Origin: Adhaeribacter aerolatus
GTDB lineage: Bacteria; Bacteroidota; Bacteroidia; Cytophagales; Hymenobacteraceae
NCBI RefSeq assembly: GCF_007991635.1
Contig: NZ_BJYS01000013.1
Coordinates: 1 to 64,000, forward strand
DNA length: 64,000 nt
Direction of reading: 5' to 3'
Below the pieces are notes generated by a model, which was not told the DNA's origin, did no database searches, and saw nothing but the letters and a program-made list of their open reading frames with translations. This document shows positions 3,127 through 18,134 of the stretch, in pieces. Each line of letters begins with the position of its first letter. The stretch's first letter is position 1. Made by a program: the position numbers and the translations under genes.

Positions 3127-3176
3127 CTCTTTTCCGGAGAAGATTATTTATTCGGTTAAGATAAAGATAAAAGAGC

Positions 3177-4676
3177 ATGAATATTTTTGAAGAAGCCCAG
3201 TTACGCCAGGCCGAGTACCTAACCCGCCGCCATTTCCTCTGGAAGTGTACTACAGGGTTGGGCGCCGTAGCCTTATCTTCGCTGATAGGCTGTAACTGGC
3301 AAAAAACCGGCAGCGACCTGGCTCCGGAAGCCAGCGGTATTGTGCGGGATTTAAGCAAGCCTTTTTTGCCGTTGCCCCCGCACTTTGCCCCAAAAGCCAA
3401 GTCGGTAATTTTTCTGCACATGGCAGGTGCACCCTCGCAACTGGAACTATTCGATTATAAACCAGCCTTAAATAAATTAGATGGACAGGACTGCCCGCCT
3501 TCGTTGCTGGAAGGTAAAAAGTTCGCGTTCATCAAAGGTGTTCCTAAAATGCTGGGGTCCCAGGCGCAGTTTAAACAATACGGGCAATCGGGCGCCTGGA
3601 TTTCGCACCACTTACCCGAATTTGCCAAAATGGCCGATGAGGTTTCTTTTCTCAAAGCGATGCACACCGACCAGTTTAACCACGCTCCGGCGCAACTGCT
3701 CATGCAAACTGGTAGCCCACGTTTGGGTAAGCCCAGCATGGGCGCTTGGGCTACTTATGGGTTGGGTTCTCTCAACGAAAACTTGCCGGGCTTTATGGTA
3801 CTGTTATCCGGAGGCAAAGCGCCGGATGCCGGAAAAGCCGGCTATGGCAGTGGCTTCCTGCCCACTGTTTACCAGGGCGTCGAGTGCCGGCAACACGGCG
3901 AACCCGTTTTGTACGTCGAAAACCCACCTGGTCTGAGCCGTGATTTGCGGAAGCAATCGATAGAAGCAATTAATGAAGTAAATAAGCTGCATTACGATGA
4001 AATGAAAGATCCCGAAACTATTTCCCGGATCTCGCAATACGAAATGGCTTTTAAAATGCAAGTTTCGGTGCCGGAGGTAATGGATATTAACAAAGAGCCG
4101 GCTTACATTCACGAACTATACGGCACGGAACCAGGTAAAGCTTCTTTTGCGAATAATTGTTTACTGGCCCGGCGCCTGGTAGAAAAAGGGGTACGGTTTG
4201 TACAGCTATTCGATTGGGGCTGGGATTCGCATGGTAATGATCCTACGAATGCACTAGATAAGGGCTTCGGCGATTTATGCAAAAAAATAGACAAACCAGT
4301 GGCGGCTCTACTCCAAGATTTAAAGATGCGTGGCTTGCTGGATGAAACCCTGGTAGTCTGGGGGGCCGAATTCGGCCGGACGCCGATGCAGGAAAACCGG
4401 GAAGGAAAGCAAATGGCTTTCAAAGGTCGCGATCACCACACCGAAGCTTTTACGGTGTGGCTGGCCGGAGGTGGCATAAAAGGTGGTTACACCCACGGCG
4501 AAACCGATGAGATTGGCTATTATGGTATTAAAGGCCGCACCGATGTCTTCGATTTACAGGCTACTATTTTAAACCAGTTGGGCATGGACCACGAGAAGCT
4601 GACTTATGCATTCCAGGGCCGCAACCACCGCCTGACTGACGTACACGGAAGGGTAATAAAAGAAATTATTGCCTGA
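3177..4676 (+). CDS. DUF1501 domain protein with Tat-type signal
   Basis: This 499-residue protein belongs to the DUF1501 family, which has an alkaline phosphatase/sulfatase-like fold. Its N terminus carries a twin-arginine signal (TRRHFLWK near residues 17-24) followed by a hydrophobic stretch ending in LIGC, so it is probably Tat-exported and may be lipidated. Family-like segments include the early HMAGAPSQLELFDYKP, the DWGWDSHGN motif and the late GAEFGRTP and GRDHH segments, where metal-binding Asp and His residues are expected. DUF1501 genes very often follow DUF1553 genes, as here. The substrate is unknown; sulfatase-like hydrolysis is only a fold-based guess. It ends at a strong two-way terminator. 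Confidence 0.9.
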   Translation: MNIFEEAQLRQAEYLTRRHFLWKCTTGLGAVALSSLIGCNWQKTGSDLAPEASGIVRDLSKPFLPLPPHFAPKAKSVIFLHMAGAPSQLELFDYKPALNKLDGQDCPPSLLEGKKFAFIKGVPKMLGSQAQFKQYGQSGAWISHHLPEFAKMADEVSFLKAMHTDQFNHAPAQLLMQTGSPRLGKPSMGAWATYGLGSLNENLPGFMVLLSGGKAPDAGKAGYGSGFLPTVYQGVECRQHGEPVLYVENPPGLSRDLRKQSIEAINEVNKLHYDEMKDPETISRISQYEMAFKMQVSVPEVMDINKEPAYIHELYGTEPGKASFANNCLLARRLVEKGVRFVQLFDWGWDSHGNDPTNALDKGFGDLCKKIDKPVAALLQDLKMRGLLDETLVVWGAEFGRTPMQENREGKQMAFKGRDHHTEAFTVWLAGGGIKGGYTHGETDEIGYYGIKGRTDVFDLQATILNQLGMDHEKLTYAFQGRNHRLTDVHGRVIKEIIA

Positions 4677-4927: not shown

Positions 4928-7900
4928 CTACCGCACCACTACCAGCCTACGGGTTTTCACATAATTACCCGCTTTCAGGGTGTACATATAAACACCACTT
5001 GCTAACTCAGCGGCATTCAGGACAATACTGTAATTACCAGCCGCCTTTTTCTCATTAACCAAAACTTTTACCTGCCGGCCTAGCTTATCGTAGAGTGTAA
5101 GCTCAACCAATACATCTTCCGGTATGGTATAATCAATAGCCGTAGAAGCCGCGAATGGATTAGGCTTGTTTTGCGCTAAAGAAAAACCACTTTCAAAAAA
5201 CTGGTCGTTAAAGTTCAGCATATAAGGCTGTTGCATTTCGCCCACAATTTTATCGGTGATAAAAGCAATACCTTTATTTTCCGCCGCCATTTCCTCGCCA
5301 GTATTTATATTAAAAATTTTAAACTCGATAAGTTCGCCGGCGTCAGCGGCCTGCCCATAGATAGTCAGGAAGATGCGATTGGTTTTCTTTGCAGAAAGAT
5401 ATTCTGTTTGAACAAACCCACGACAAACGCCATTTATATAAGCCCCAACCGTGTACTGATTATTCGTGACGGGCAAACCATTCTGGTTCAGCATACCGGT
5501 TAGGGTCATGGTATATTCGTACTTATGTTCATCTATCTCAAAATTAGATCCATCGGTTGCTTTTTTGTGGTAACCCAAATTAGCCGGAGCCGATAATTTA
5601 AGTTTGTAGCTCTGCCCTGGGTCCAGGGTTCTTAAATCGCCCAGCCAGGCGTTTACCGCGCTGGAATAAGTAGCAAACGAGGTAAAGCTTTTTAGGAGAT
5701 CATCATTTTTAGGGACGAAAGTAGCGCCCAAAGCGGTTTTAATATCAGCATTTTGCAGTTTAGGGTAACCAATCCAGTTCCAGCCACCCGGTAACGCAAC
5801 CGGTGTAAAGGTAGTTGGCGTGGTACCTACCACACGCAAAGTGTCGGGCCGGTCCGATAAATACACCATATAGCCACTGGTTAAATTAACCGTTTTCAGG
5901 GTACCGCTCCAGCCAGACTGCGGCGTAAAGTCGGTAAAATCAGTCTGGCTTTTTACCGTTATTTTATTGCCCGAGGCTAACAAACTGCTGAATACTTTTT
6001 CGCGGGTCATGTCGGGTGTTTCTACATTCAGAGATACCCAATTCCAGCCTTTTTTGAGTGGTATAACCTGGAAAGTACCTTCTGAATGGAGCAGGTAAGG
6101 CGTAGCGGGAGAGCCGGTAATGCCGTCTATCACAAAAGGAGTTTTTTCCAAAGCACCATATTCTACCCCTGTTAAAGCATTCCACATGCGGAAGGTAATA
6201 ATTTCTTTACCTGCCCCCGCTTCGTTGCTATAAACGGTCAGGAAAGCGGCATACTTACCCGGCATACCATCTATCTTCCGGATTTTAGCTACGCCGCGTG
6301 GTACGCCGTTAACAAAAGCCGCAATAACATCCCGTTCATCGATAGAAGTAGGACTATTGCTGGGCAGGGCACTTAAAGTGTACTGCGCCACAATATTCAT
6401 AGAGTAGTTATAATCCGAGGCATTTACGCTCCAGGCAACAGGAATGGCCAGTAGTTCTAACTTGATGGGCAGTGCCTCTTTTATGCCATCAATTACAGCT
6501 TCTACTACTCCGTTGTATACGCCTGGTTTCAGCTCTTTACTGAGGGCAAATTCCAGTGGAAAGACCCCATAGGGTTGAATAACGCCTTTTTGAGCGGATG
6601 GTGTAAGCCACGACGGGTAAATGGCAAGGGTAAACGCTTTGCTGATTTCAGCCGTGTTTTTAAGTTCTGATTTTAACTTAACCCCCGAACCAATCGTAAC
6701 CGATTGCTCCAGTTTATCCGGATCCCAGAATACCGGTTTTACATTTACTTTGAAAGACCAAACCGTTGGGTATTTCTGAATGTTGCCGGCATTGTCTTCA
6801 ATTCCACTCACGGTAGCAGTCAACTCTACACCGGCCAGTGAAATATCGTTAATCGCAGATTCCGGGTCGGTTTTAATGATAATGGTATTGCCGGAACATT
6901 GTACCTTAATTTTCAGCGTACTACCATTATCCTTGCGGATCAGGGATACTTTGGAACTGAAATCCTGGGTACATTTAATGGTTTTATCGAAGGTTACGCT
7001 AATATTTTGTCCGGGCCTTAAGAAGTTATCTGCCGGAGACGGGGTGCCAAATGGTGCCACCGAGCCCCGGTCAATATTTCCTGTCAAAACTTCGGAATAG
7101 GTAGTTTGGCCTAAGGTTTCGCACGTTGCAAACGCCCTTATCTCGTACTTGCCATCCGCAAATTTTGCTAAATCCGATACATCCCAGATGTAATCTTTAA
7201 ACTGATCGATAAGTTGCGCCTTCGGAATGGTGGTTGCTGTTTCCCAGGTTTTACCTTCGGCCCGGTACTGTAACCCAACCGAAGTGAAAGTAGGATTATT
7301 TACATCATAACCGGTAAGCGTAACCGTCATTTTATTCGCACTGCCCTGATTAATCAGCCAGTTGTCACCGGGTTTACTAATCTGTACGGTACTGCACTGG
7401 CTCTGGAAATTAACGGATATCGAAACCGTGTCGGTATTCACAAAAGAGCCCCCGTTCTGGAAGATAGCATACTCGCATTCGGGGTACATCATTAGTTGAA
7501 TATCCTGGTAATTAAAAGCGTATGGCCCTCTTTCTACCGTAATGGTAATGGGAATAGATGGACCGGGTTGCAGGAAGAACACAACCGGCGTAGTATTAAT
7601 AATTTGCCCCCCCATCCGGATAATAGCTCCATCCATATTGGTGGCCGGAATTACCCGTACGGCATATTCCCGGCCTTCCTCACTTTCATTTACGTTGGCA
7701 ATATTTGCCACAAACACGGCGGGCTCGTTAGCGGGCACATTGCTAACGGTATAGCGGTTAAGGTCTATCTGGGGTTTATCGCGGGTTTGGGTACCAGGCT
7801 CGTTGGGGCAACTGCTGGTACCGGCATTTAGCTTAAACAATGGTGTATTGTAGCGCGGGTCATTGTATATATCCACGCTAAAAAAATCACCAATGTCATC

Positions 7901-10900
7901 ATCATCCAGGTGATAACCAATGGTGGTGCTTTTGGCAATGCTGGTATTGGTAGTAGTCTGACTCGACCATTTAAAATTGATCAAGGCACCCAAATCGGCT
8001 GATAAGAAGCCGCCTAAGTAGGCAAATCCGCCAATGGCAATATCGCTATTGATAAAGGTAGAGAAATCATAAGTAGTAGTGTTTTCAGTAGATTTTGTAA
8101 CTACTGAGGTAAAGGGCGCGCCGGCACTGAAGGAACGGTTCTCGATGAAGTGCTGCTGCGAGATTTCTTCCCGCTGCTTATCATTTTTATCGAGCACTTG
8201 CTGCCACACGTTAATAGAGCTGTTTAACATCTGTACCGTATCCTTTGCCGACTGCAAACCGGTTCGGGTAGCCCTTTTCTCGCTAATTTCCTTTAAGCGC
8301 TTTAATTGGGTAAGAATATTATACCGAATCTGATAATCGGTATAAGTATAAGTGGTAGCAATTGATTCGGGATTCCAGTAAATGGATACATCCGGCACCA
8401 CCTGGCAGTTTTCTACTTTTACAATATCAATCAGCCCGTAACGGATGTTGTAAGAAGCGCCTACGAATACATCGCCCTGGGAGCCGGTAAAAACATTGGT
8501 ATTGGCTGTAGAAAGTTGCTGCGTAGCGGTGATGGTAGTAGCTAAGGCATCTCCGTTAATGGCTGTTTCCCCGTTTAATAATTGGGTATCAAATTTAATA
8601 CCGGCCCCAAATTCCGGAACAAATGGGAGGCCACTAACCCCGCCGCCTATTTTCAGATTTACGAATGCACCGGTTTCTTTTGAATTAGTAACTGCCGTTT
8701 GGGTAATAAAAGTATAAGAAGAGTCTTTCTGCAGATAGCTATAACTTTGATCGCCCATGGGGTCGTGCAATATTAAATGGGGCAGCTCGGGCGTACGGGT
8801 TACAAAGGTTCCTACCCGCGGTTTGCCACCCGTTACAATGGCACTAAACGAAGCAGTTACGGGCACAGCTGAGCCTATCCTGGCTGTTACTTCAAACCTT
8901 TTTCTATATGGCGCTACAATGTTTGGTAATCCGGCTTTAAGCGAATAAGTAACCGTGCCATTGCCTACCGGCAATTTAAAAACGCCTTTATCGCCAACAT
9001 CATCGGTAATTTGCAGTTCGCCTTCGGCTACAAAACAACTGGTGTTTAAGTAGGTATTAATTTCTTTTACCTCAATTTTTATAGGGTACAAGAAATGCTG
9101 CTCCATCACATAATCGTTGTTGCACTTGGTAGTTGGCAAATCTTTAAAGGTTATAGACAGCCCTTCATGAAATACAAAAGGAGCTTTGCGCGTAACAGCT
9201 ACATTATTTACTTTTTCCTGTTGGGTCAGGTCCAATTCAATGCGACCCAGAGCTGCCATTTGTTTTAAAATATTGCTGCTGTTATGAGAAGTTTCTACAA
9301 CCTGCAGGGAGTATTTCTGGGCGGGCAATTCAATTTGCTGACTGGCGCCGTTAATTGTAATGGTTTGGTCATAACAATAAATATCGGGCTTGGCCGGATC
9401 AGCCACCGAACGGATATTCACTTTAAAAGATGCCGTAACGGCATCGCCACAGCCGGAAAGTAAACTTACCAGTACTTTCTCTGTTTGCGTATCCGTAAAA
9501 TTGGCGGTGACCAATTCCGTAGTAATCGTTACATTTTCTGATGCTTTGTTAAAAGTATGATGGTAAAAGACTGGCTTCACATTGTAGGTGCCTTCATTCT
9601 CCACGTTAATCAGGTACTTACCTTCTATGTTCGTCCGGTTACCAATATCTTTTCCATCCAGCAGCATACTTACGCCTTCCACCGGACATCCGTTGGGGTC
9701 GGCTACTGTTCCGGCAATGGTATAAACCGTATTATCTTTAAAATTCACCCCATTTACTACATACAGGTTCTGATCCAAAGTTCTTTTGTGGGTAATTGGG
9801 TCGAACTCATGATCGCCTTTGGATGGTGTTAAAGTAAATTCTGCATTATCGAAATAGTAAATATTCTTAATTTCGTAATACCCGGCAGCATCGGTTACAG
9901 CCTTAAACTCAATAGTGGTACCATTGTGATTGTAGGAGGAAATAGGCGTTCCGTTTACGATGCCGGTGGCTACTACCGTTACGCCGGCCACATTGGCCCC
10001 AAATTTAGATTGTACGGTACCGCTTATTTTACCATTAGGTAAGATATAACCAGTGTTGTCGTAAGAAGGAAAGGTTCGGCCGTCCTTGATCGGGGTAAGG
10101 CGGTAAGTATAAACATATCCCGGAATGGCGGTGTTATCGTTGTAAAAGGTGGCGTTTTTGTTTAAAATTTCAACTTCCTCAAAAGCAGTGGCATTTGGTA
10201 AACTGCGCTCTATCCGGATATTATCAGCAAAGGAAGAAATATTTAACCATTCCAGCCGAACCCGGTTAGTGAAGGCTCCATCAGAAGCATTAACCGCAAT
10301 AGATTTGGAATAGCCGGTTACAGGAACGCCGGAGGATTCGTGAACGCCCCACTTGGTTGAATAAGTACGTACGGAGTAGTTATGAGTCGCGCCCGGGTTT
10401 ACGGAGGCGTCTTTCCAGGACCGCTGATCCCCGTTGGCCGTCTGAATCAGGTTTCCATCCCGATAGATCCGGTAAACTGAATTTGAATCCGGAATATCAG
10501 TACCCTTACTCCATTTTAGTTCTATGTAATCAAACCCCGTTTGATTGGAAGCAGTTACGCCGGTTGGGTTTTTGATGGCAGCCGTAGAGGCCGCCCCTTC
10601 CACACTGTAACCCGGCGCATTATGTTCTTCTTCATTCATAGCCCTTGGGAAACCGCTCCAAACCCAGGTTAAACAGCCGCCCGAAGGGTAGCCTTCCTGA
10701 TACCTGATACTCCCGTAACCATTCTGCCCCGGGCCTACGCCCAAGACTTTTGAGCCGTTGTTTGGCAGCTTGGTGTCGGCTCTATCGACAAAATAAATCT
10801 CTTTATTTGAACCATTTGGTTTATACCTAATCTCAAGAACCGGCTCCTTTTCACTACCGCAATTTACTACATCCAATCCTTCCCAGGTATAAGTAAGGTA

Positions 10901-11089
10901 GTAATCCGAGCCGTTACTTTTTATAGTAGTTAACAAGTCAGGATATACCCGCTGGGCGGTAGCTGTGGAGGAAGAAGCCAGCAACAAGGTGACTAAGGAA
11001 AAGAAAAAGAACCATGCGAATTTCTTTTCTGCCAGAGAAGAACTTAAGCTGTCAATTCTTTTCTGTTTACTAAGTAAATGTAGATCCAT
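4928..11089 (-). CDS. Giant multidomain cell-surface protein with T9SS sorting domain
   Basis: The 2053-residue product starts with a long signal peptide (hydrophobic core about 25-45, ending ATAQ). Then come fibronectin type III-like units (about 170-350), two carboxypeptidase-regulatory-like beta domains (about 350-450 and 455-530), a long poorly recognised middle, and a Big_5-like Ig domain (about 1340-1450). A module beginning YNYSMN (about 1560) is repeated as YEYTMT (about 1857), each with a conserved stretch of the type AAFVNGVPRG/GAYINGVCRG; two GWNW modules (about 1682 and 1768) lie between them. The last 85 residues (from QNKPNPF to the end RRLVVVR) are a type A T9SS sorting domain. 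It is probably a surface-anchored or released adhesin-like or structural protein. It lies 370 bp downstream of the hybrid sensor gene on the same strand, which may control it. No catalytic motif was seen. Confidence 0.88.
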   Translation of the reverse strand: MDLHLLSKQKRIDSLSSSLAEKKFAWFFFFSLVTLLLASSSTATAQRVYPDLLTTIKSNGSDYYLTYTWEGLDVVNCGSEKEPVLEIRYKPNGSNKEIYFVDRADTKLPNNGSKVLGVGPGQNGYGSIRYQEGYPSGGCLTWVWSGFPRAMNEEEHNAPGYSVEGAASTAAIKNPTGVTASNQTGFDYIELKWSKGTDIPDSNSVYRIYRDGNLIQTANGDQRSWKDASVNPGATHNYSVRTYSTKWGVHESSGVPVTGYSKSIAVNASDGAFTNRVRLEWLNISSFADNIRIERSLPNATAFEEVEILNKNATFYNDNTAIPGYVYTYRLTPIKDGRTFPSYDNTGYILPNGKISGTVQSKFGANVAGVTVVATGIVNGTPISSYNHNGTTIEFKAVTDAAGYYEIKNIYYFDNAEFTLTPSKGDHEFDPITHKRTLDQNLYVVNGVNFKDNTVYTIAGTVADPNGCPVEGVSMLLDGKDIGNRTNIEGKYLINVENEGTYNVKPVFYHHTFNKASENVTITTELVTANFTDTQTEKVLVSLLSGCGDAVTASFKVNIRSVADPAKPDIYCYDQTITINGASQQIELPAQKYSLQVVETSHNSSNILKQMAALGRIELDLTQQEKVNNVAVTRKAPFVFHEGLSITFKDLPTTKCNNDYVMEQHFLYPIKIEVKEINTYLNTSCFVAEGELQITDDVGDKGVFKLPVGNGTVTYSLKAGLPNIVAPYRKRFEVTARIGSAVPVTASFSAIVTGGKPRVGTFVTRTPELPHLILHDPMGDQSYSYLQKDSSYTFITQTAVTNSKETGAFVNLKIGGGVSGLPFVPEFGAGIKFDTQLLNGETAINGDALATTITATQQLSTANTNVFTGSQGDVFVGASYNIRYGLIDIVKVENCQVVPDVSIYWNPESIATTYTYTDYQIRYNILTQLKRLKEISEKRATRTGLQSAKDTVQMLNSSINVWQQVLDKNDKQREEISQQHFIENRSFSAGAPFTSVVTKSTENTTTYDFSTFINSDIAIGGFAYLGGFLSADLGALINFKWSSQTTTNTSIAKSTTIGYHLDDDDIGDFFSVDIYNDPRYNTPLFKLNAGTSSCPNEPGTQTRDKPQIDLNRYTVSNVPANEPAVFVANIANVNESEEGREYAVRVIPATNMDGAIIRMGGQIINTTPVVFFLQPGPSIPITITVERGPYAFNYQDIQLMMYPECEYAIFQNGGSFVNTDTVSISVNFQSQCSTVQISKPGDNWLINQGSANKMTVTLTGYDVNNPTFTSVGLQYRAEGKTWETATTIPKAQLIDQFKDYIWDVSDLAKFADGKYEIRAFATCETLGQTTYSEVLTGNIDRGSVAPFGTPSPADNFLRPGQNISVTFDKTIKCTQDFSSKVSLIRKDNGSTLKIKVQCSGNTIIIKTDPESAINDISLAGVELTATVSGIEDNAGNIQKYPTVWSFKVNVKPVFWDPDKLEQSVTIGSGVKLKSELKNTAEISKAFTLAIYPSWLTPSAQKGVIQPYGVFPLEFALSKELKPGVYNGVVEAVIDGIKEALPIKLELLAIPVAWSVNASDYNYSMNIVAQYTLSALPSNSPTSIDERDVIAAFVNGVPRGVAKIRKIDGMPGKYAAFLTVYSNEAGAGKEIITFRMWNALTGVEYGALEKTPFVIDGITGSPATPYLLHSEGTFQVIPLKKGWNWVSLNVETPDMTREKVFSSLLASGNKITVKSQTDFTDFTPQSGWSGTLKTVNLTSGYMVYLSDRPDTLRVVGTTPTTFTPVALPGGWNWIGYPKLQNADIKTALGATFVPKNDDLLKSFTSFATYSSAVNAWLGDLRTLDPGQSYKLKLSAPANLGYHKKATDGSNFEIDEHKYEYTMTLTGMLNQNGLPVTNNQYTVGAYINGVCRGFVQTEYLSAKKTNRIFLTIYGQAADAGELIEFKIFNINTGEEMAAENKGIAFITDKIVGEMQQPYMLNFNDQFFESGFSLAQNKPNPFAASTAIDYTIPEDVLVELTLYDKLGRQVKVLVNEKKAAGNYSIVLNAAELASGVYMYTLKAGNYVKTRRLVVVR

Positions 11090-11459
11090 AAGTTTTTGTT
11101 TTTATTGGGTTTATTAATTATTGGATAAAGCAAAGTGAGTACAAAGACAGCATAAGAAATAATGCTGAAAGAAGGCTTTTCAGGATTCGGCCTGATTCTG
11201 TAGGCTATGTCCAGGATTTGTTTCAGATTGTTGGGCTAAATAAAACCGCCCTTGGTATAACCTATCCGGAGCTAGTTGGCCGTAATAATTATTGCCTTAT
11301 TCTAAGGTAAAAGTAGATTCTGTAGAGGTAAACCGTTAGCAGAAAATGGCCATTCTTTGCAATTAATTGGCCACAGAAGCAAAATAACAGGCTTTACAGT
11401 AAAACATAGCCGGATAAAAACAGCAAAGTGCTTTTACCGCTTTATTCTCCAGGTTAAGA
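11090..11459. other. Intergenic region before the giant surface protein gene
   Basis: This 370-base gap separates the stop of the hybrid sensor gene from the start of the giant T9SS gene. No open frame is convincing. A weak -7-like TGTCTTTG on the minus strand (one mismatch to TAnnTTTG) lies about 50 bases before the start codon without a clear TTG partner. It is the likely promoter and regulator-binding region of the giant gene. Confidence 0.4.
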
Positions 11460-14400
11460 TCAAGCATATTGGGAGGGAGAAACAGAAAATTGCTCTTTAA
11501 AGCATTTAGAAAAGTAAGAAAGGCCTTCGAAACCGGTCAGCTCGGCAACCTCCGAAACAGAATGCCCTTCCCGCAAAAGCATGGCCGCTTTATTCAGCCG
11601 ATAAGTCCGGATGAGCGTGTTGGCGTTCATATCGGTGAGGGCTGCTAATTTTCGGTGCAGGGTTCGGGTACTCACGTTCATATTATCAGCCATTTGCTCT
11701 ACAGCAAAGTCAGCGTTGGCTAATTCGCGGTTTAATATTCTATATAACTCTTGTAAAAAAGGATCTTCGGCTGGTTCTACCGGTAAGTTAAGCGGCGGTT
11801 CTCCGGAGTCGGGTTGAGAAAATTGGCGGAACCAGTATTGGCGCGACGTCTGCTGATAACTGAGCCAATTGGCTACCCGCAATTGTAGTTCCTGCAAGTT
11901 AAAGGGCTTGGTTAAATAATCATTAGCACCTGCTGTCAGCCCCTGTACCCGGTTGCCGGCAGAGGTACGGGCCGTTAATAAGATAACCGGAATGTGGGTA
12001 GTAAGCGGCGTACCCTTTATCAATTGACTCAGCGTAAACCCGTCCATTTGGGGCATGGTTACATCGGCAATTATTAGATCGGGCAATTCCTGCTGCGTTA
12101 ATCGCCAGCCTTCTGCCCCATCGGCAGCCATTATTACCCGGTATTCTAGGGTTAGGCCCTGGCTAACAAAAGCACGCAATTCGTCGTGGTCTTCTACTAC
12201 TAATATTAAAGGGGCATCTTCAGCTACCAGAGGTAAGGGTGGGGATAAAATTTCCTCTTCCGGCATAATAACTGGCAACGCCGCCACCAGCTTGCCCGGA
12301 ACCACATTATCCGCTTTCCGCATTGGCAAGGTTACCCTAAAAATTGTTCCTTTTTCTACCTGACTTTCTGCTTCAACCTGTCCGCCTAATAATTGTGTTA
12401 ATTCCTTTACCAAAGACAAGCCCAAGCCTGACCCGGCCAAAAATTGTGTGCGCGGGTCATTTACCTGTTGAAACCGGTCGAATATTAAAGGCAGTTGCGC
12501 GGCCGGAATACCAATGCCGGTATCCGTAACCTGCAACTGCAACAAGTCTTCTGCTCTCACAACTCTGGTCCAAGTCAGGTCTATCTGCACGGTGCCACCG
12601 GCCGGGGTAAATTTAAGGGCATTAGAAAGCAGATTATAAATAATATTTTCCAGCTTTTCCGCGTCAAAAAGGTGTTCAGCCGGTTTTCCTTCGGCATGGA
12701 AGTCCAATCGAATGAATTTCTTTTGGGCTTGTAAGCGAAACGTTTCCACGATATTTCCAACAAACTCAACCACATTACCTTGCGACTCATTTAAATTCAT
12801 GCTGCCAGCTTCCAGTTTAGCAGAATCCAATAATTGAGTTATCAGGCGCAGTAAACGTTGGGCATTCCGGTATATAATTTTATGCTGCTGTCTGATTATT
12901 TCGGGGGAAGCCAGCGCCGGCTGGGCGCGTAACTGCTCCAGCGGCCCCATAATAAGGGTTAAAGGGGTGCGGAATTCGTGGGTAATGTTGGTGAAGAACT
13001 GAGTTTTTAATTGGTTTAACTCTTGCAGTTTTTCGTTTTGTAAATGTTCTAAAGCAAATTTGTTTTGCAAACGGATACGGCTTAGCTGAACATAGAAAAT
13101 GGCCCCTATAATAACTAAGGCTACCAAGGTATAAAACAGATAAGCTGCCGTAGATAGGTAAAAAGCCTGCCCCACCAAAACAGGTATGTGGAGTTCTTTA
13201 CCCCAGGTACCATTGCTGCTCTTTGCTTTGATGCTTAAGGTATATTTGCCGGCAGGCAAACCAGCTAATTGTAAATAATTTACGGCGCCAATGTTTTGCC
13301 ATTCATCCGAAAGACCTGCCAGCCGGTAAGCAAACTGGAGTTGGTTGTTGTGCGGTCCGAAATAATTTTTTAGCGCAAAATAAACCGAGAAGAACTTGTC
13401 CTGGTAATGGAGGTTAATGGTTTTTAAACTGTTAATGTCCAGGGTAGTTTCTTCTATTTTGTTTTTCAGGCCATTGTGCTGCACCAGTTTAGTGAGCCTG
13501 ACCTGAGATACTTGGGTTGGCAGCATCAATTTATTCGGATTAAAATAAATAATGCCATCCATCGAACCAAAATATAAGTTACCATCGGTTCCGGCTAAAG
13601 CCGATCCTTGGTTAAATTCATTTGTGCGCAGGCCATCGCGGGTGTAAAAATTACGAAACAATTTATGCTGCAGGTTTAAACGGGATAAGCCGTTGAAAGT
13701 GCTTATCCATAGTTGGTTTTCTGCCCCGGGCAAAATGGCACAAACTTTATTATCTGCTAACCCGTCCTTTTCGGTATAGTGCTCCTCTACCCGGCCATTT
13801 TCCGGATTAAACACATTTATACCACCACCTTTTGTGCCCAGCCACAGCCAACCCTTTTTATCTTCGTAAATACAGTTTATAAAATTATGCGTTAATCCTG
13901 GCTTGCTAGCGCCTGGCGTGGCCGAACTGTAATGTAAGATTAAACCTTGCTTTTTGTTTATGCGGTATAGCCCGTAATCGGTACCTAACCAAATAGATTT
14001 GTCGCGGCCCTGGTGTATAGCCAGGATCTGTAAAAGCGGAAAACTTTTCTTTTCCTTTCCCCAGTTAAACAACTGCGCCTGGCCGTTCTGCGGGTTAAGG
14101 GTGTACAAATTATTATAGCCGCCCAACCAAAGTAAGCCTTCGTCATCCTTTAACAAAGAAAAATTATGCGTTGATATAATAGGAGTCTTATCCTTTACTG
14201 AAGCCTTGGGTTTATCCAGGTAAGCGGTAAGTGTATGGCTGTTTAGATTAAAATGACCTAACCCAAATGCTTCGGTAGCCATCCAAATAGTTCCGTCGTT
14301 ACCGCGTACCAAGGCTCGGGCCAGCGGGTTTACCCAGGTATTATCCCTTTTAACTTTATACTCTTTAAATTTATTAAGAGCCAAGTTGTATTTAAAAAAG

Positions 14401-15548
14401 CCACTATAACTGCCAATAAGCAAATCGCCATCGGCCGACTGCAGCAAGCCCCGCGTGCTAAAATAAGGATAGGCCCCAATACCTTTGGGCAGGGAAATAG
14501 TTTTGAAAATACTCTCCCGGTTATTTAGCTTGTAAACGCCAAAATAAGAACCCAGCCAGAGTTGTTCGTTAGCATCCTCGTACAGGCATTCAATCTGAAA
14601 ATAGCCGGCCCCGCTTTGCATAAACTGCCCGGTGAAATTTTCAATTTGCTTTGATTTCAGGTCGAAGCGAAATAATTCACTTTGGGTAACCAGCCAGAGG
14701 AAGCCTTTTTTATCCTGGTAAAAGTGCTTAATTGGATCTTTTAACAAACTAAGCTGTTCCTCATTTACCAGGAGAATAAATTTATTTAAAGCCGGCCTGT
14801 AAACATAAATCTTTCGCTGATCGGCGTAGAAGCGAATAGCTTTATTTGTAAATGAAGCCAAACAAAGTCTGTTCGCCGGAAGCGAGAAGTCATGCAGCAA
14901 CTGGCCCTGCGGGTTTAATTCCCGGAAACCATGCTGCTTATCGGCAACCCATAGCTGCTGTTTATCATCTTCAGAGATTTGAAGTACAATCCGTTGCAGA
15001 CCTGTATAGTCAGCGGCAAACGAGTTCGGAATACGTGAAAAAGATTCTCTATCAGTAGAACGATATAAGTAACCATCGTCGGAACTACACCAGATAGCTC
15101 CATCGTGCGTTTGGGTAATCGCATAGATGGCTTTTTTAGCTTCTGTCACAGCGCCTGCTGTAACCAGGTAAGACTTAATGGATTTCCGGTCAGCACTAAG
15201 CCTTTGTAAGCCATTACCCGTGCCAATCCACAGGTTACCTTGGTGGTCTTCATAAAGCGCCAGCACCAAATCGGCCGTTAACCGGATACCAACGGAGGAC
15301 GTATTAATTAATTCGGCATGGTAGCCATCGTACCGGTATAAGCCGGTTTCGCTACCAAACCACATAAAGCCATAGGTATCTTTTAAAATACACTTAACTT
15401 TCAGGCCGTCGAGGTGGGCGATTTTAAGAATTTGCGTTTTACTAATAGCTGCTTCCTGGGCCTTTCCGGAAATATTTAAGGTGCAGCTTACTAATATCAG
15501 CATGGGCAGCCATTTTAAACTTAACACAAAATTTAAAGAATGGTGCAT
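11460..15548 (-). CDS. Hybrid two-component system: propeller sensor, histidine kinase, receiver, AraC output
   Basis: This single-chain regulator has 1362 residues. A signal peptide is followed by many Reg_prop beta-propeller repeats (DxxGxLWxGT-type units, about 40-690), a Y_Y_Y domain (about 740-800) and one membrane segment (about 808-830). The cytoplasmic part holds HisKA with the phospho-acceptor His in HEFRTPLTL (about 859), HATPase with NLLSNALKFTP, DTGIGIP and GSGLGLSLV, a receiver with VEDHDE and the Asp of IIADVTMPQMDG (about 1162), and an AraC DNA-binding domain (about 1260-1362). In Bacteroidota such proteins sense carbohydrates in the periplasm and switch on nearby polysaccharide genes. 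No SusC/SusD pair is present here; the nearest gene on the same strand is the giant T9SS protein, the most plausible target. The ligand is unknown. Confidence 0.95.
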   Translation of the reverse strand: MHHSLNFVLSLKWLPMLILVSCTLNISGKAQEAAISKTQILKIAHLDGLKVKCILKDTYGFMWFGSETGLYRYDGYHAELINTSSVGIRLTADLVLALYEDHQGNLWIGTGNGLQRLSADRKSIKSYLVTAGAVTEAKKAIYAITQTHDGAIWCSSDDGYLYRSTDRESFSRIPNSFAADYTGLQRIVLQISEDDKQQLWVADKQHGFRELNPQGQLLHDFSLPANRLCLASFTNKAIRFYADQRKIYVYRPALNKFILLVNEEQLSLLKDPIKHFYQDKKGFLWLVTQSELFRFDLKSKQIENFTGQFMQSGAGYFQIECLYEDANEQLWLGSYFGVYKLNNRESIFKTISLPKGIGAYPYFSTRGLLQSADGDLLIGSYSGFFKYNLALNKFKEYKVKRDNTWVNPLARALVRGNDGTIWMATEAFGLGHFNLNSHTLTAYLDKPKASVKDKTPIISTHNFSLLKDDEGLLWLGGYNNLYTLNPQNGQAQLFNWGKEKKSFPLLQILAIHQGRDKSIWLGTDYGLYRINKKQGLILHYSSATPGASKPGLTHNFINCIYEDKKGWLWLGTKGGGINVFNPENGRVEEHYTEKDGLADNKVCAILPGAENQLWISTFNGLSRLNLQHKLFRNFYTRDGLRTNEFNQGSALAGTDGNLYFGSMDGIIYFNPNKLMLPTQVSQVRLTKLVQHNGLKNKIEETTLDINSLKTINLHYQDKFFSVYFALKNYFGPHNNQLQFAYRLAGLSDEWQNIGAVNYLQLAGLPAGKYTLSIKAKSSNGTWGKELHIPVLVGQAFYLSTAAYLFYTLVALVIIGAIFYVQLSRIRLQNKFALEHLQNEKLQELNQLKTQFFTNITHEFRTPLTLIMGPLEQLRAQPALASPEIIRQQHKIIYRNAQRLLRLITQLLDSAKLEAGSMNLNESQGNVVEFVGNIVETFRLQAQKKFIRLDFHAEGKPAEHLFDAEKLENIIYNLLSNALKFTPAGGTVQIDLTWTRVVRAEDLLQLQVTDTGIGIPAAQLPLIFDRFQQVNDPRTQFLAGSGLGLSLVKELTQLLGGQVEAESQVEKGTIFRVTLPMRKADNVVPGKLVAALPVIMPEEEILSPPLPLVAEDAPLILVVEDHDELRAFVSQGLTLEYRVIMAADGAEGWRLTQQELPDLIIADVTMPQMDGFTLSQLIKGTPLTTHIPVILLTARTSAGNRVQGLTAGANDYLTKPFNLQELQLRVANWLSYQQTSRQYWFRQFSQPDSGEPPLNLPVEPAEDPFLQELYRILNRELANADFAVEQMADNMNVSTRTLHRKLAALTDMNANTLIRTYRLNKAAMLLREGHSVSEVAELTGFEGLSYFSKCFKEQFSVSPSQYA

Positions 15549-16299: not shown

Positions 16300-17052
16300 T
16301 TAAACCCAGCGGTTTATAAACTTGTTAAAGGCATCTTTGTATTGGTCACTCACCGGAATATTAGCGGCGCCAATCTGAACGCTTTGCCGGGTAACCGATT
16401 GTATTTTATCCAGGGCTACAATAAAGGACCGGTGGATGCGCATAAACTTCTTAGCGGGTAATTTTTCTTCGAGGGCTTTCAGGCTGATGAGCGATAGAAT
16501 AGGTTTAGGAGCGCTTTGCAGGTGTATTTTCACGTAATCTTTTAACCCTTCAATGTAAAGAATATCGTTCAGCGCTACCCGCACCAACTGGTACTCTACT
16601 TTCAGAAAAATATATTCATCGTCCGCCGCTGCCGGGGCAGTTACTACCGGGTTGGGCTCCGTTGGTTTCTGCCGGAGTTCGGCGTAAGCCAAAGCTTTAT
16701 TGGCGGCTCTAATAAATTCGGCGTAGTTAAATGGTTTTAATAAATAATCCAGCGCATCGAGCCGGTAACCTTCCAAGGCATACTGGTTAAAAGCGGTGGT
16801 AAAAATAATCCGCGGCCCTTGGCCAGGCTGGCCTTTATCTAGTACGCGCGCCAAATCCGTACCACTTAAATCCGGCATCTGAATATCCAGAAATATTAGA
16901 TCTACCGGCTGCTGGTGCAGGTGGTTCAGGGCGGCCAGGGCGCTGGTATACCGGCCGGCTAGTTGCAGAAAAGGCGTTTGCTTGATAAAGGTACAAACCA
17001 ACTCCAGTGCCAGGGGTTCGTCGTCAACGGCAATGCAGGTTAAAGTCATCAT
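16300..17052 (-). CDS. LytTR-family response regulator
   Basis: This 250-residue regulator has a receiver domain (about 1-120) with acidic residues DDE at 10-12, the phospho-acceptor Asp56 in FLDIQMPD and Lys in the LLKPF motif, followed by a LytTR DNA-binding domain (about 145-250) with the typical FMRIHRSFIV segment. Its start overlaps the stop of the sensor gene by four bases (ATGA at 17,049-17,052), so the two are translationally coupled and form one two-component system. Targets are unknown; LytTR regulators in Bacteroidota often act on nearby secreted-protein genes, and the small secreted protein at 18,459 is the closest candidate. Confidence 0.95.
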   Translation of the reverse strand: MMTLTCIAVDDEPLALELVCTFIKQTPFLQLAGRYTSALAALNHLHQQPVDLIFLDIQMPDLSGTDLARVLDKGQPGQGPRIIFTTAFNQYALEGYRLDALDYLLKPFNYAEFIRAANKALAYAELRQKPTEPNPVVTAPAAADDEYIFLKVEYQLVRVALNDILYIEGLKDYVKIHLQSAPKPILSLISLKALEEKLPAKKFMRIHRSFIVALDKIQSVTRQSVQIGAANIPVSDQYKDAFNKFINRWV

Positions 17053-18134
17053 AAATCTAAAGCTAAGTGCACCACAAATTCGTTTTCCGGCGTTTTCTCC
17101 GTAATATTTAAACTATAATTATGCGGGTAGAGTAAGTCGAGGCGGCGGCGGGTATTTATTAAGCCAATGCCATTGCTCTCGTCTAAGGTTACCCGCTTTT
17201 GGGTAAAAAGGGTATTGCGTACCTCAATAGCCAGGTGCTTATGTTGCTGCTTTATCCCAATGTAAATCCGGCTAGGCTCCTCCGTACTCACCCCATATTT
17301 AAAGGCATTTTCGATAAACGGCAAGAGCAACATGGGGGCAATAGGTACATCGGCTAACGAAGCGGGTTGCTCAAAAATAACCTGTACCTTGTCGGTTAGC
17401 CGCAGTTTCATCAGGTCAATATAATCCTGCACAAAAGCTAGTTCTTTGCTCAACAGCGTTCTGTCGGCTTGGGTATCGTAGAGCACGTAACGCATCATCC
17501 GCGACAACGTATGCAGGGCCTTCTGGGCCAGCTCTACGTTAAACATTGTGAGCGAATAAATATTATTGAGCGTATTAAAAAAGAAGTGCGGATTAATCTG
17601 GGCTTTCAGAAAAGAAAGTTCGGAGCTAATTTTCTCCTGTTCCAGGTCCTGCCGGACTTTTGTTTCCATACGCCATTTTTGTACGGTTGCCACGCTGGTA
17701 CTAATAAAAAGAATGAGCAGAATCATCCCGCTGGTAAAAAAATGACGGCCCATATCAAATCCCCCTTCCCGCCGGTGCGAGCGCATGGTATCCGGCCTGT
17801 TTGCATGCGTAGCCTGGTACATTAACTCCGATAAATTTAACCATTTGCTGGCTGTATTTAAAAGTATAAAAACACCCACGCTGGTGGCTAAAGCCAGAAA
17901 CATAAACAGCCATATCTTATTTTTAAATAGAAAATGAGGTACCCAAACATTGGCATTCAGATAAAACAAGCAGATAAAGACACAAAAAATAATGCCTTGC
18001 ATTATCCAGAACTGAGTAGGTAACGCAATATTCCAGCTTAAAGGCTGCAACACCAGCAGCATTACGCCCAAGGTAGTCCACACTAAAATATGAATTAGAG
18101 CAGGTAAGTAAGGCCGTAGGGAAAAAGTAATCAT
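17049..18134 (-). CDS. LytS-like sensor histidine kinase
   Basis: This 361-residue kinase has four hydrophobic membrane segments (about 13-32, 42-60, 74-94 and 133-152) and a short coiled linker, then the His_kinase (PF06580) domain with the phospho-acceptor His183 in AQINPHFFFNTLNNI. A C-terminal ATPase segment has the N-box-like LPFIENAFKYG and the GIGLINTRRRL glycine motif. There is no separate extracellular sensor domain, so the membrane part probably senses the signal. It is co-transcribed with the LytTR regulator gene that overlaps it. Confidence 0.95.
   Translation of the reverse strand: MITFSLRPYLPALIHILVWTTLGVMLLVLQPLSWNIALPTQFWIMQGIIFCVFICLFYLNANVWVPHFLFKNKIWLFMFLALATSVGVFILLNTASKWLNLSELMYQATHANRPDTMRSHRREGGFDMGRHFFTSGMILLILFISTSVATVQKWRMETKVRQDLEQEKISSELSFLKAQINPHFFFNTLNNIYSLTMFNVELAQKALHTLSRMMRYVLYDTQADRTLLSKELAFVQDYIDLMKLRLTDKVQVIFEQPASLADVPIAPMLLLPFIENAFKYGVSTEEPSRIYIGIKQQHKHLAIEVRNTLFTQKRVTLDESNGIGLINTRRRLDLLYPHNYSLNITEKTPENEFVVHLALDL

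What the first reader, a model, noticed from the sequence alone, without database searches (positions are those of the whole stretch)
4928..15548. Hybrid sensor/AraC regulator paired with a giant T9SS protein and no SusCD
Hybrid two-component systems normally sit beside polysaccharide utilisation loci. Here the same-strand neighbour is a 2053-residue surface protein with FnIII, carboxypeptidase-regulatory, Ig-like and duplicated YNYS/GWNW modules. The sensor may therefore control adhesion or surface structure instead of a sugar-uptake locus.
Basis: partly seen in the sequence, partly recalled or inferred. Interest (0 to 1): 0.5.

Follow-up and report, generated by a model that had tools for sequence, protein, structure and literature searches.

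The report
Sugar sensor wired to one surface protein
In the bacterium Adhaeribacter, a sensor protein of a kind that usually switches on sugar-eating gene clusters appears to be wired, through its own short DNA switch, to one giant exported surface protein, and related bacteria keep the sensor and switch while changing what they control.

Summary
11460-15548(-) encodes a complete hybrid two-component AraC regulator (HTCS); the next same-strand gene, 4928-11089(-), encodes a 2053-aa T9SS cargo protein. Profiles found no SusC/SusD in the 64 kb. "FnIII" had no Pfam hit.

The pair is also adjacent in A. rhizoryzae, with different flanks. The nine nearest HTCS found in the family all have a T9SS-tailed protein next downstream, against 4 of 32 other HTCS; the seven cargo proteins scanned hit no catalytic domain.

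The 370-bp gap holds a 21-nt direct repeat (11336-11373), the geometry published for HTCS operators. It is conserved in A. rhizoryzae and in a third species where the partner is an unrelated T9SS protein, and the strict pattern occurs once per genome. The same half-site follows sister sensors in another family, where the downstream genes vary. A sister operator's one extra copy precedes a further T9SS LRR/Ig protein.

Most likely the sensor directly switches the giant on. Binding, induction, ligand and adhesion are untested.

The giant's family spans several phyla and follows other sensor types in some of them. Its core is predicted as two long beta-hairpins, with only weak structural matches.

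The parts
4928..11089 (-). Giant T9SS cargo protein, 2053 aa (P0001), the proposed target
   Evidence: homologues
11460..15548 (-). HTCS sensor/AraC regulator, 1362 aa (P0002)
11336..11373 (-). Candidate HTCS operator: direct repeat, half-sites starting 21 nt apart; 86 nt after the sensor stop, 246 nt before the cargo ATG
   Evidence: 21-bp geometry in PMC3878776 (passages)
4937..5164 (-). T9SS type A sorting domain of P0001 (residues 1976-2051)
5225..6433 (-). Duplicated YNYS / GWNW modules of P0001 (about residues 1553-1955)
   Evidence: seen in sequence; conserved W residues
7865..8872 (-). Core domain of P0001 (residues 740-1075): two long beta-hairpins plus a helical hairpin (predicted); 97% identical to A. 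rhizoryzae over 741-1075
9497..9718 (-). Carboxypeptidase-regulatory-like domain of P0001 (residues 458-531), below Pfam cut-off
13389..15431 (-). Propeller (Reg_prop) region of P0002, about residues 40-720 (bounds set by eye)
12309..13043 (-). Histidine kinase region of P0002 (about 836-1080, H857)
11853..12212 (-). Receiver domain of P0002 (about 1113-1232, D1162)
11466..11693 (-). AraC-type DNA-binding domain of P0002 (1286-1361)

Best explanation
This is a one-sensor/one-cargo module built from PUL-type parts. The HTCS P0002 spans the inner membrane. Its periplasmic propeller binds a ligand, probably an oligosaccharide (inferred from the family). Phosphotransfer H857 to D1162 then makes the AraC domain bind as a dimer to the 21-nt direct repeat at 11336-11373 and switch on the downstream gene (inferred). 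That gene makes a 2053-aa multi-domain protein exported by the type IX system to the cell surface, where it most likely acts in contact or binding rather than sugar uptake (inferred). Shown here by computation: the domain make-up, the adjacency in two species, the class of protein next to the nearest sensors, and the repeat's conservation, near-uniqueness and agreement with the sensor phylogeny. Not shown: binding, induction, ligand, surface location and adhesion.
For: Pair adjacent in A. rhizoryzae (87% and 72% identity) with different flanking genes. Nine of nine nearest HTCS found in the family (567 bits or more) have a T9SS-tailed protein next downstream, same strand, against 4 of 32 others, Fisher 2e-6; SusC/SusD in view in 1 of 9 against 19 of 33 loci, Fisher 0.022. 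Seven of the nine cargo proteins were Pfam-scanned: all seven pass the Por_Secre_tail cut-off and none hits a catalytic domain above cut-off; the other two are homologues of scanned ones. SprA is in the genome. Best three-way 38-nt block between the G000, G001 and G005 gaps scores 79 of 114; 1000 dinucleotide shuffles reach at most 70. Pattern search of 8 Adhaeribacter genomes with up to 3 mismatches: one site each in G000, G001 and G005, all at the sensor-cargo gap, none in the other five, none for the reversed control. A GGCC-type repeat follows 7 of 62 HTCS and needs 1 change on the HTCS tree (shuffled mean 6.8; 0 of 500 as low); 0 of 61 upstream stretches hold any of the three classes. The sister GTAAC-type element has 5 copies in G005, 4 at pairs and 1 upstream of a further T9SS Recep_L/Ig/PKD protein. 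HTCS motifs in Bacteroides are direct repeats averaging 21 bp apart (PMC3878776, passages). In the G005 orthologue the DNA-binding and receiver domains are better conserved than the propeller (70.5% and 76.7% against 49.2%).
Against: Six of the nine are in one genome (G005) and four of those are close paralogues, so independence is limited. The window's own repeat is not significant alone (lag-21: 94 of 300 and 37 of 300 shuffles as good), and in G005's orthologue the lag-21 score alone is no better than shuffles (261 of 300; its spacing is partly 22); significance comes from cross-species conservation. The class regexes were written after seeing most of the sites. Of seven GGCC-type sensors four are followed by a T9SS-tailed gene, one of these (L245) labelled by my own profile only. 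In L250, L255 and L260 a TCCC-type site is followed by a gene on the opposite strand. The extra GTAAC copy in G005 lies three genes below one of the pairs, so it is not far from an HTCS. The giant lacks an HTCS neighbour in G017 and G211. A LytTR/His_kinase system lies just upstream of the HTCS and could contribute. No expression or binding data.
Confidence: 0.66

Rival explanations
1. The sensor controls a distant polysaccharide utilisation locus, and the giant gene is only a chance neighbour.
For: The sensor has the full PUL-type HTCS architecture. 25 of 36 B. thetaiotaomicron HTCS are co-localised with susC/susD-like genes (PMC3878776, passages). In A. rhizoryzae a SusC/SusD pair lies about 1.2 kb beyond the far end of the giant, on the other strand.
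Against: Under the strict and the relaxed pattern the only copy of the candidate operator in the window's genome is at the pair. Adjacency is kept with changed flanks. The nearest sensors mostly lack SusCD in view (1 of 9).
Confidence: 0.1
2. The repeat belongs to the sensor gene (autoregulation, a 3'-end function or a relic of its mobility) and does not control the downstream gene.
For: The repeats lie 30-86 nt after the sensor stop in all nine pairs, whatever follows. In L250, L255 and L260 the next gene is on the opposite strand.
Against: In G005 one copy lies 65 nt upstream of a T9SS gene with no HTCS directly beside it, though three genes below a pair. None of 61 sensor upstream stretches holds such a site. 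In Bacteroides the predicted HTCS sites lie in the promoter regions of the regulated operons (PMC3878776, passages).
Confidence: 0.16
3. The pair is nutritional after all: the giant captures or tethers a polysaccharide at the surface, so sensor and cargo form a reduced PUL.
For: HTCS with this sensor type studied so far bind oligosaccharides (PMC3878776, passages). An order-level relative is followed by a protein with CBM_3 (L245). The YNYS/GWNW modules could bind carbohydrate (a guess, untested).
Against: No CBM, glycosidase or lyase domain in P0001. No SusC/SusD in the window; the four nearest neighbours scanned (PSD1, DUF1501, LytTR, His_kinase genes) are not glycosidases, though the PSD1 gene has a sub-threshold CBM_6 match; the rest of the window was not scanned for enzymes. 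Homologous giants follow unrelated sensor types in part of the loci.
Confidence: 0.25

Closest known systems
Bacteroides HTCS regulators of PULs (best PDB hit of P0002 is 4a2l; recalled to be BT4663)
   Same: Same domain order; operator is a direct repeat about 21 bp apart; regulator next to its target
   Different: The neighbour is one T9SS surface-type protein, with no SusC/SusD in the window. Not unique in lacking them: 11 of 36 B. thetaiotaomicron HTCS are not among the 25 co-localised with susC/susD (PMC3878776, passages)
GppX of Porphyromonas gingivalis and TF0022 of Tannerella forsythia
   Same: Hybrid regulators whose loss alters gingipain production and localisation, or autoaggregation and surface-protein modification (PMC5706477, passages)
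   Different: The passages seen do not describe pairing with an adjacent cargo gene through a private operator, and they also report a nutritional (ampG) role for TF0022; sequence relationship to P0002 not tested here
T9SS type A surface proteins, including SprB-like adhesins (SprB recalled)
   Same: C-terminal sorting domain, large multi-domain exported protein
Secretins and aerolysin-type pore formers (fold only)
   Same: Long amphipathic beta-hairpins; top Foldseek rows for residues 740-1075
   Different: TM-scores at most 0.26, query-normalised at most 0.18; VIA Z at most 6.5, top row Rad50, best secretin 6.2

Membership tests
HTCS (hybrid two-component system) | Periplasmic propeller plus Y_Y_Y sensor | tested here: met
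   Reg_prop 3.8e-40, Y_Y_Y 7.2e-10
HTCS (hybrid two-component system) | Fused kinase, receiver and AraC domains with catalytic H and D | tested here: met
   HisKA, HATPase_c, Response_reg, HTH_18; H857, D1162
HTCS (hybrid two-component system) | Direct-repeat operator about 21 bp apart by its target | tested here: met
   Candidate 11336-11373, conserved in three species; binding itself not testable here
Polysaccharide utilisation locus | SusC/SusD pair in the locus | tested here: not met
Polysaccharide utilisation locus | Carbohydrate-active enzymes in the controlled operon | tested here: inconclusive
   P0001 has no such Pfam domain; most other window genes were not scanned
T9SS type A cargo | C-terminal sorting domain above curated cut-off | tested here: met
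   TIGR04183 37.5 bits, cut-off 23
T9SS type A cargo | T9SS machinery in the genome | tested here: met
   SprA TIGR04189, 2390.7 bits; other components not searched
T9SS type A cargo | N-terminal signal peptide | tested here: inconclusive
   hydrophobic stretch seen by eye, no predictor run
Beta-barrel pore former / secretin-like | Fold shared with secretins or the aerolysin family | tested here: inconclusive
   Foldseek top rows but TM at most 0.26; VIA Z at most 6.5
Adhesin | Demonstrated binding or aggregation role | not testable with these tools
   needs experiment
GppX-type regulator | Orthology to PGN_1768 / TF0022 | not tested
   named from PMC5706477 (passages) only

The most novel reading that the evidence does not exclude
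The giant is not a plain adhesin but a T9SS-exported protein whose two long amphipathic hairpins (residues about 791-854 and 1006-1048) assemble with other copies into a beta-barrel channel or pore at or beyond the cell surface. Different bacterial groups place this family under different sensors. The sister sensor followed by a delta-endotoxin-domain protein (L243) would then be another case of an HTCS controlling a membrane-active secreted protein.
Probability: 0.12. Interest if true: 0.78.

Novelty: new variant of a known kind. Interest (0 to 1): 0.55.

Why it matters
HTCS regulators are commonly read as markers of sugar-uptake loci. Here a group of them, with recognisable private operators, points to single exported surface proteins instead, and the operator stays with the sensor while the neighbouring gene is swapped. 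If true, sensor plus operator class could be used to predict regulated surface proteins in Bacteroidota without a PUL. It also gives a concrete, testable handle on an uncharacterised giant protein family found, by record titles, from Adhaeribacter to Calditrichota and KSB1.

Tried and rejected
A single-sequence direct-repeat test of the window gap: not significant alone (94 of 300 and 37 of 300 shuffles); only the cross-species block is.

Sigma-70 promoter and terminator scan: about as many sites as in shuffles (22 against 25.8; 20 against 18.5). A Bacteroidetes -7 box regex (TAnnTTTG, recalled) matched in two of the nine gaps, both in G005, not in the window's. Rfam at gathering cut-offs and tRNA scan: nothing.

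Fold search of residues 535-1372: Foldseek's rows are complement/macroglobulin, axonemal and similar chains at very high rmsd; VIA's are Ig-like matches, mainly to the C-terminal part. Core alone: secretins and aerolysin-type rows, too weak to claim. BFVD: one row at E 1e-6 but TM about 0.2 and 3% identity, dismissed. No family absent from the VIA list is taken as excluded. PDB by sequence for P0001: one row at E 0.39, ignored.

Literature: seven searches (listings and abstract starts) showed no title or abstract on an HTCS paired with T9SS cargo in this open-licence library; that is no proof of absence. Passages were read in PMC5706477, PMC3878776 and PMC12125979 (not used). No paper was read whole.

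Full report
WHAT IS THERE. The two genes are at the stated coordinates. P0002 (11460-15548, minus) is a full-length HTCS: Reg_prop, Y_Y_Y, HisKA, HATPase_c, Response_reg, HTH_18, best PDB hit 4a2l, with H857 and D1162 present. P0001 (4928-11089, minus) is 2053 aa, with a T9SS sorting tail above the curated cut-offs, sub-threshold carboxypeptidase-regulatory and Big_5 matches, and no enzyme domain. FnIII was not detected at E<=1. SprA is in the genome. The genus is inferred as Adhaeribacter: the same-genus genome G001 is A. rhizoryzae DK36 by matching contig length and position.

SYNTENY. In G001 the same two genes are adjacent (87% and 72% identity, gap 534 bp) while the flanking genes differ; a metallophosphoesterase gene and a SusC/SusD pair lie beyond the giant on the other strand. 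In G005 the sensor orthologue (55-56%) is followed by an unrelated 786-aa T9SS protein with Recep_L, Ig and PKD domains. Full-length relatives of the giant in G017 and G211 (Botryobacter ruber, by contig) have a TPR protein upstream and no HTCS. So the pair is in 2 and the close sensor in 3 of the 8 Adhaeribacter genomes searched, the window's own included and one of them 78% complete.

NEIGHBOURS OF THE NEAREST SENSORS. The nine HTCS scoring 567 bits or more against P0002 (six in G005, one each in G000, G001, G003; one of the G005 genes is broken) all have a T9SS-tailed protein next downstream on the same strand, gaps 95-534 bp. Of 33 other HTCS loci taken from the same lists, 32 had a visible downstream gene and in 4 of those it was T9SS-tailed (Fisher 2e-6). 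SusC/SusD was in view in 1 of 9 against 19 of 33 (Fisher 0.022); the views were 20-35 kb for the nine and 12-20 kb for the others. Cargo domains: LRR/Recep_L plus Ig plus PKD (four), PKD (one), FG-GAP plus TIG (two), the giant (two). Seven of the nine were scanned; none hits a catalytic domain above cut-off. The other two are homologues of scanned ones at 78% and 87%. One search scored only three candidates per genome and one search covered 12 genomes, so further members may have been missed. Paralogues are not independent, so the p-values are generous.

WIDER RELATIVES. A search of 390 order-level genomes listed 53 matches outside the genus, up to 698 bits, some of them closer to P0002 than the G003 and G005 paralogues. 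I fetched the 20 best. A gene with a T9SS tail by my own profile is next downstream in 5 of 20 (L245, L253, L254, L256, L259) and SusC/SusD is in view in 2 of 20. Of the four of those five that were Pfam-scanned, only one shows Por_Secre_tail at E<=0.01, and below cut-off, so 5 of 20 is an upper figure. Other downstream genes include a chorismate-binding enzyme, a DUF418 protein and a protein with a delta-endotoxin N-terminal domain. The one-sensor/one-surface-protein pattern is therefore clean among the nine in Adhaeribacter and loose further out.

THE OPERATOR. The gap between the genes holds TGGCCAATTAATTGCAAAGAA followed by TGGCCATTTTCTGCTAA, half-sites starting 21 nt apart (11336-11373). 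Taken alone it is not significant. The best three-way 38-nt ungapped block among the gaps of G000, G001 and the G005 orthologue is exactly this element: 79 of 114 pair matches against a maximum of 70 in 1000 dinucleotide shuffles. This holds although the G005 neighbour is a different protein. A degenerate pattern with up to 3 mismatches hits once in each of these three genomes, at the sensor-cargo gap, and never in five other Adhaeribacter genomes; the reversed control never hits. A looser pattern, tried on the three genomes, adds one 3-mismatch hit in G001. The other pairs carry other half-sites at the same spacing: TGTCCCAAAA in G003 and G005 (one copy each) and GTAAC (a GCAAC variant in one) in the four G005 paralogues. 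The GTAAC element has five copies in G005: four at pairs and a fifth 65 nt upstream of a 1082-aa T9SS protein with Recep_L, five Ig stretches and PKD. That gene has no HTCS directly beside it but lies three genes below the L086 pair. In the nine pairs the repeat starts 30-86 nt after the sensor stop.

OPERATOR AND SENSOR PHYLOGENY. Over 62 HTCS from both fetches, a repeat of the three classes follows 19 sensors and lies upstream of none of 61 (the broken L084 sensor was given no upstream stretch); mononucleotide shuffles give about 0.2 per set. The GGCC class (7 sensors: three Adhaeribacter, four from another family) needs one change on the tree (support 89/79, 91% of bootstrap trees; shuffled mean 6.8, none of 500 as low). 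The TCCC class needs 2 changes, the GTAAC class 3 (36 of 500 shuffles as low). The four outside GGCC members are followed by an endotoxin-domain protein, a 545-aa protein without Pfam hits at E<=0.01, a CBM_3 protein with a T9SS tail by my profile, and a DUF418 protein. The regexes were written after seeing most of the sites, and near-copies inflate clustering, so these numbers are supportive rather than clean tests. Published HTCS motifs are direct repeats with an average 21 bp between tandem sites (PMC3878776, passages read).

THE GIANT FAMILY. The core was used to scan the GTDB species genomes: 150 stretches encode relatives, 79 distinct loci were kept, by record titles from Adhaeribacter, Draconibacterium, Mariniphaga, Neolewinella, Chitinophagaceae, Calditrichota, KSB1 and others, many of them MAGs. 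In family f1 it was found in 10 of 204 genomes: short form (about 2050-2100 aa) in four, long form (about 2770-3135 aa, split in G002) in six, both in none, but only 2 candidates per genome were scored there and 7. Of 97 giants seen, 60 had usable upstream sequence after dropping truncated, duplicate and short-flank ones. Directly upstream on the same strand a signalling gene lies in 12 of 60 against 0 of 42 T9SS controls of 700 aa or more (Fisher 0.0012); within two genes 16 of 60 against 1 of 42; in family f1 alone 5 of 10. So 44 of 60 usable giants have no signalling gene within two genes upstream. The types differ: HTCS (Adhaeribacter; split into several ORFs in the Calditrichota locus L149), propeller kinase (L168), kinase-receiver-AraC (L176), kinase plus LytTR (the Adhaeribacter long forms, L172, L190), AraC (L140, L166). 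The controls come from 39 loci in eight of the nine genomes searched, chosen from a truncated list, and the giants span many phyla, so the comparison is rough.

CORE FOLD. AlphaFold2 of residues 740-1075 with 79 sequences gives pTM 0.68, mean pLDDT 74, and two hairpins with strands of about 20-28 residues, low-confidence tips, and a long helical hairpin. Four hairpin segments show strong in/out hydrophobic alternation across the family (p 0.001 or less); other segments of the same strands and the third hairpin are weak or not significant. Foldseek's best rows are secretins, then aerolysin-type proteins, all at low TM; VIA's top row is Rad50 at Z 6.5, then secretins from 6.2. This is compatible with, but does not show, an oligomeric barrel. 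The core and the following Ig region are the most conserved parts between G000 and G001 (97% and 96%), the first 60 residues and the tail the least (60% and 61%).

MECHANISM AND STATUS. Shown by computation: domains, adjacency, class of neighbour, repeat conservation and near-uniqueness. Inferred: oligosaccharide ligand, phosphotransfer, activation through the repeat, surface display, contact function. Precedent for hybrid regulators acting on surface properties exists in GppX and TF0022 (PMC5706477, passages). I file the sensor as an HTCS, reject PUL membership on absent SusCD, and call the module a new variant of a known kind.

Noticed in passing
window 16300-18134 (-): A LytTR response regulator and a His_kinase sensor lie directly upstream of the HTCS on the same strand; long-form giants in four other Adhaeribacter genomes follow a kinase plus LytTR pair.
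   Followed up: partly
window 376-4676 (+): A PSCyt1/PSCyt2/PSD1 protein next to a DUF1501 protein, an arrangement better known from planctomycetes (recalled).
   Followed up: no
L085, L086, L087, L242 (G005:C2, 209,526-base contig): One small contig carries three HTCS plus T9SS pairs and a further T9SS LRR/Ig gene with the same operator; it looks like a store of swappable surface proteins.
   Followed up: partly
L243:6298-7875: A protein with a delta-endotoxin N-terminal domain (8e-22) is the next gene after the highest-scoring HTCS relative outside the genus, with a GGCC-type repeat between them.
   Followed up: partly
L133, L134, L146, L155 (JAUIGE010000006.1): Several copies of the giant family, some in tandem, on one contig of a Bacteroidia MAG.
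   Followed up: no
G002 giant, L084, L100, L102, L149: Several sensors or giants appear split over two or more ORFs in relatives.
   Followed up: no
family f1: Short and long forms of the giant were not found together in any of the 10 carriers, with few candidates scored per genome.
   Followed up: no
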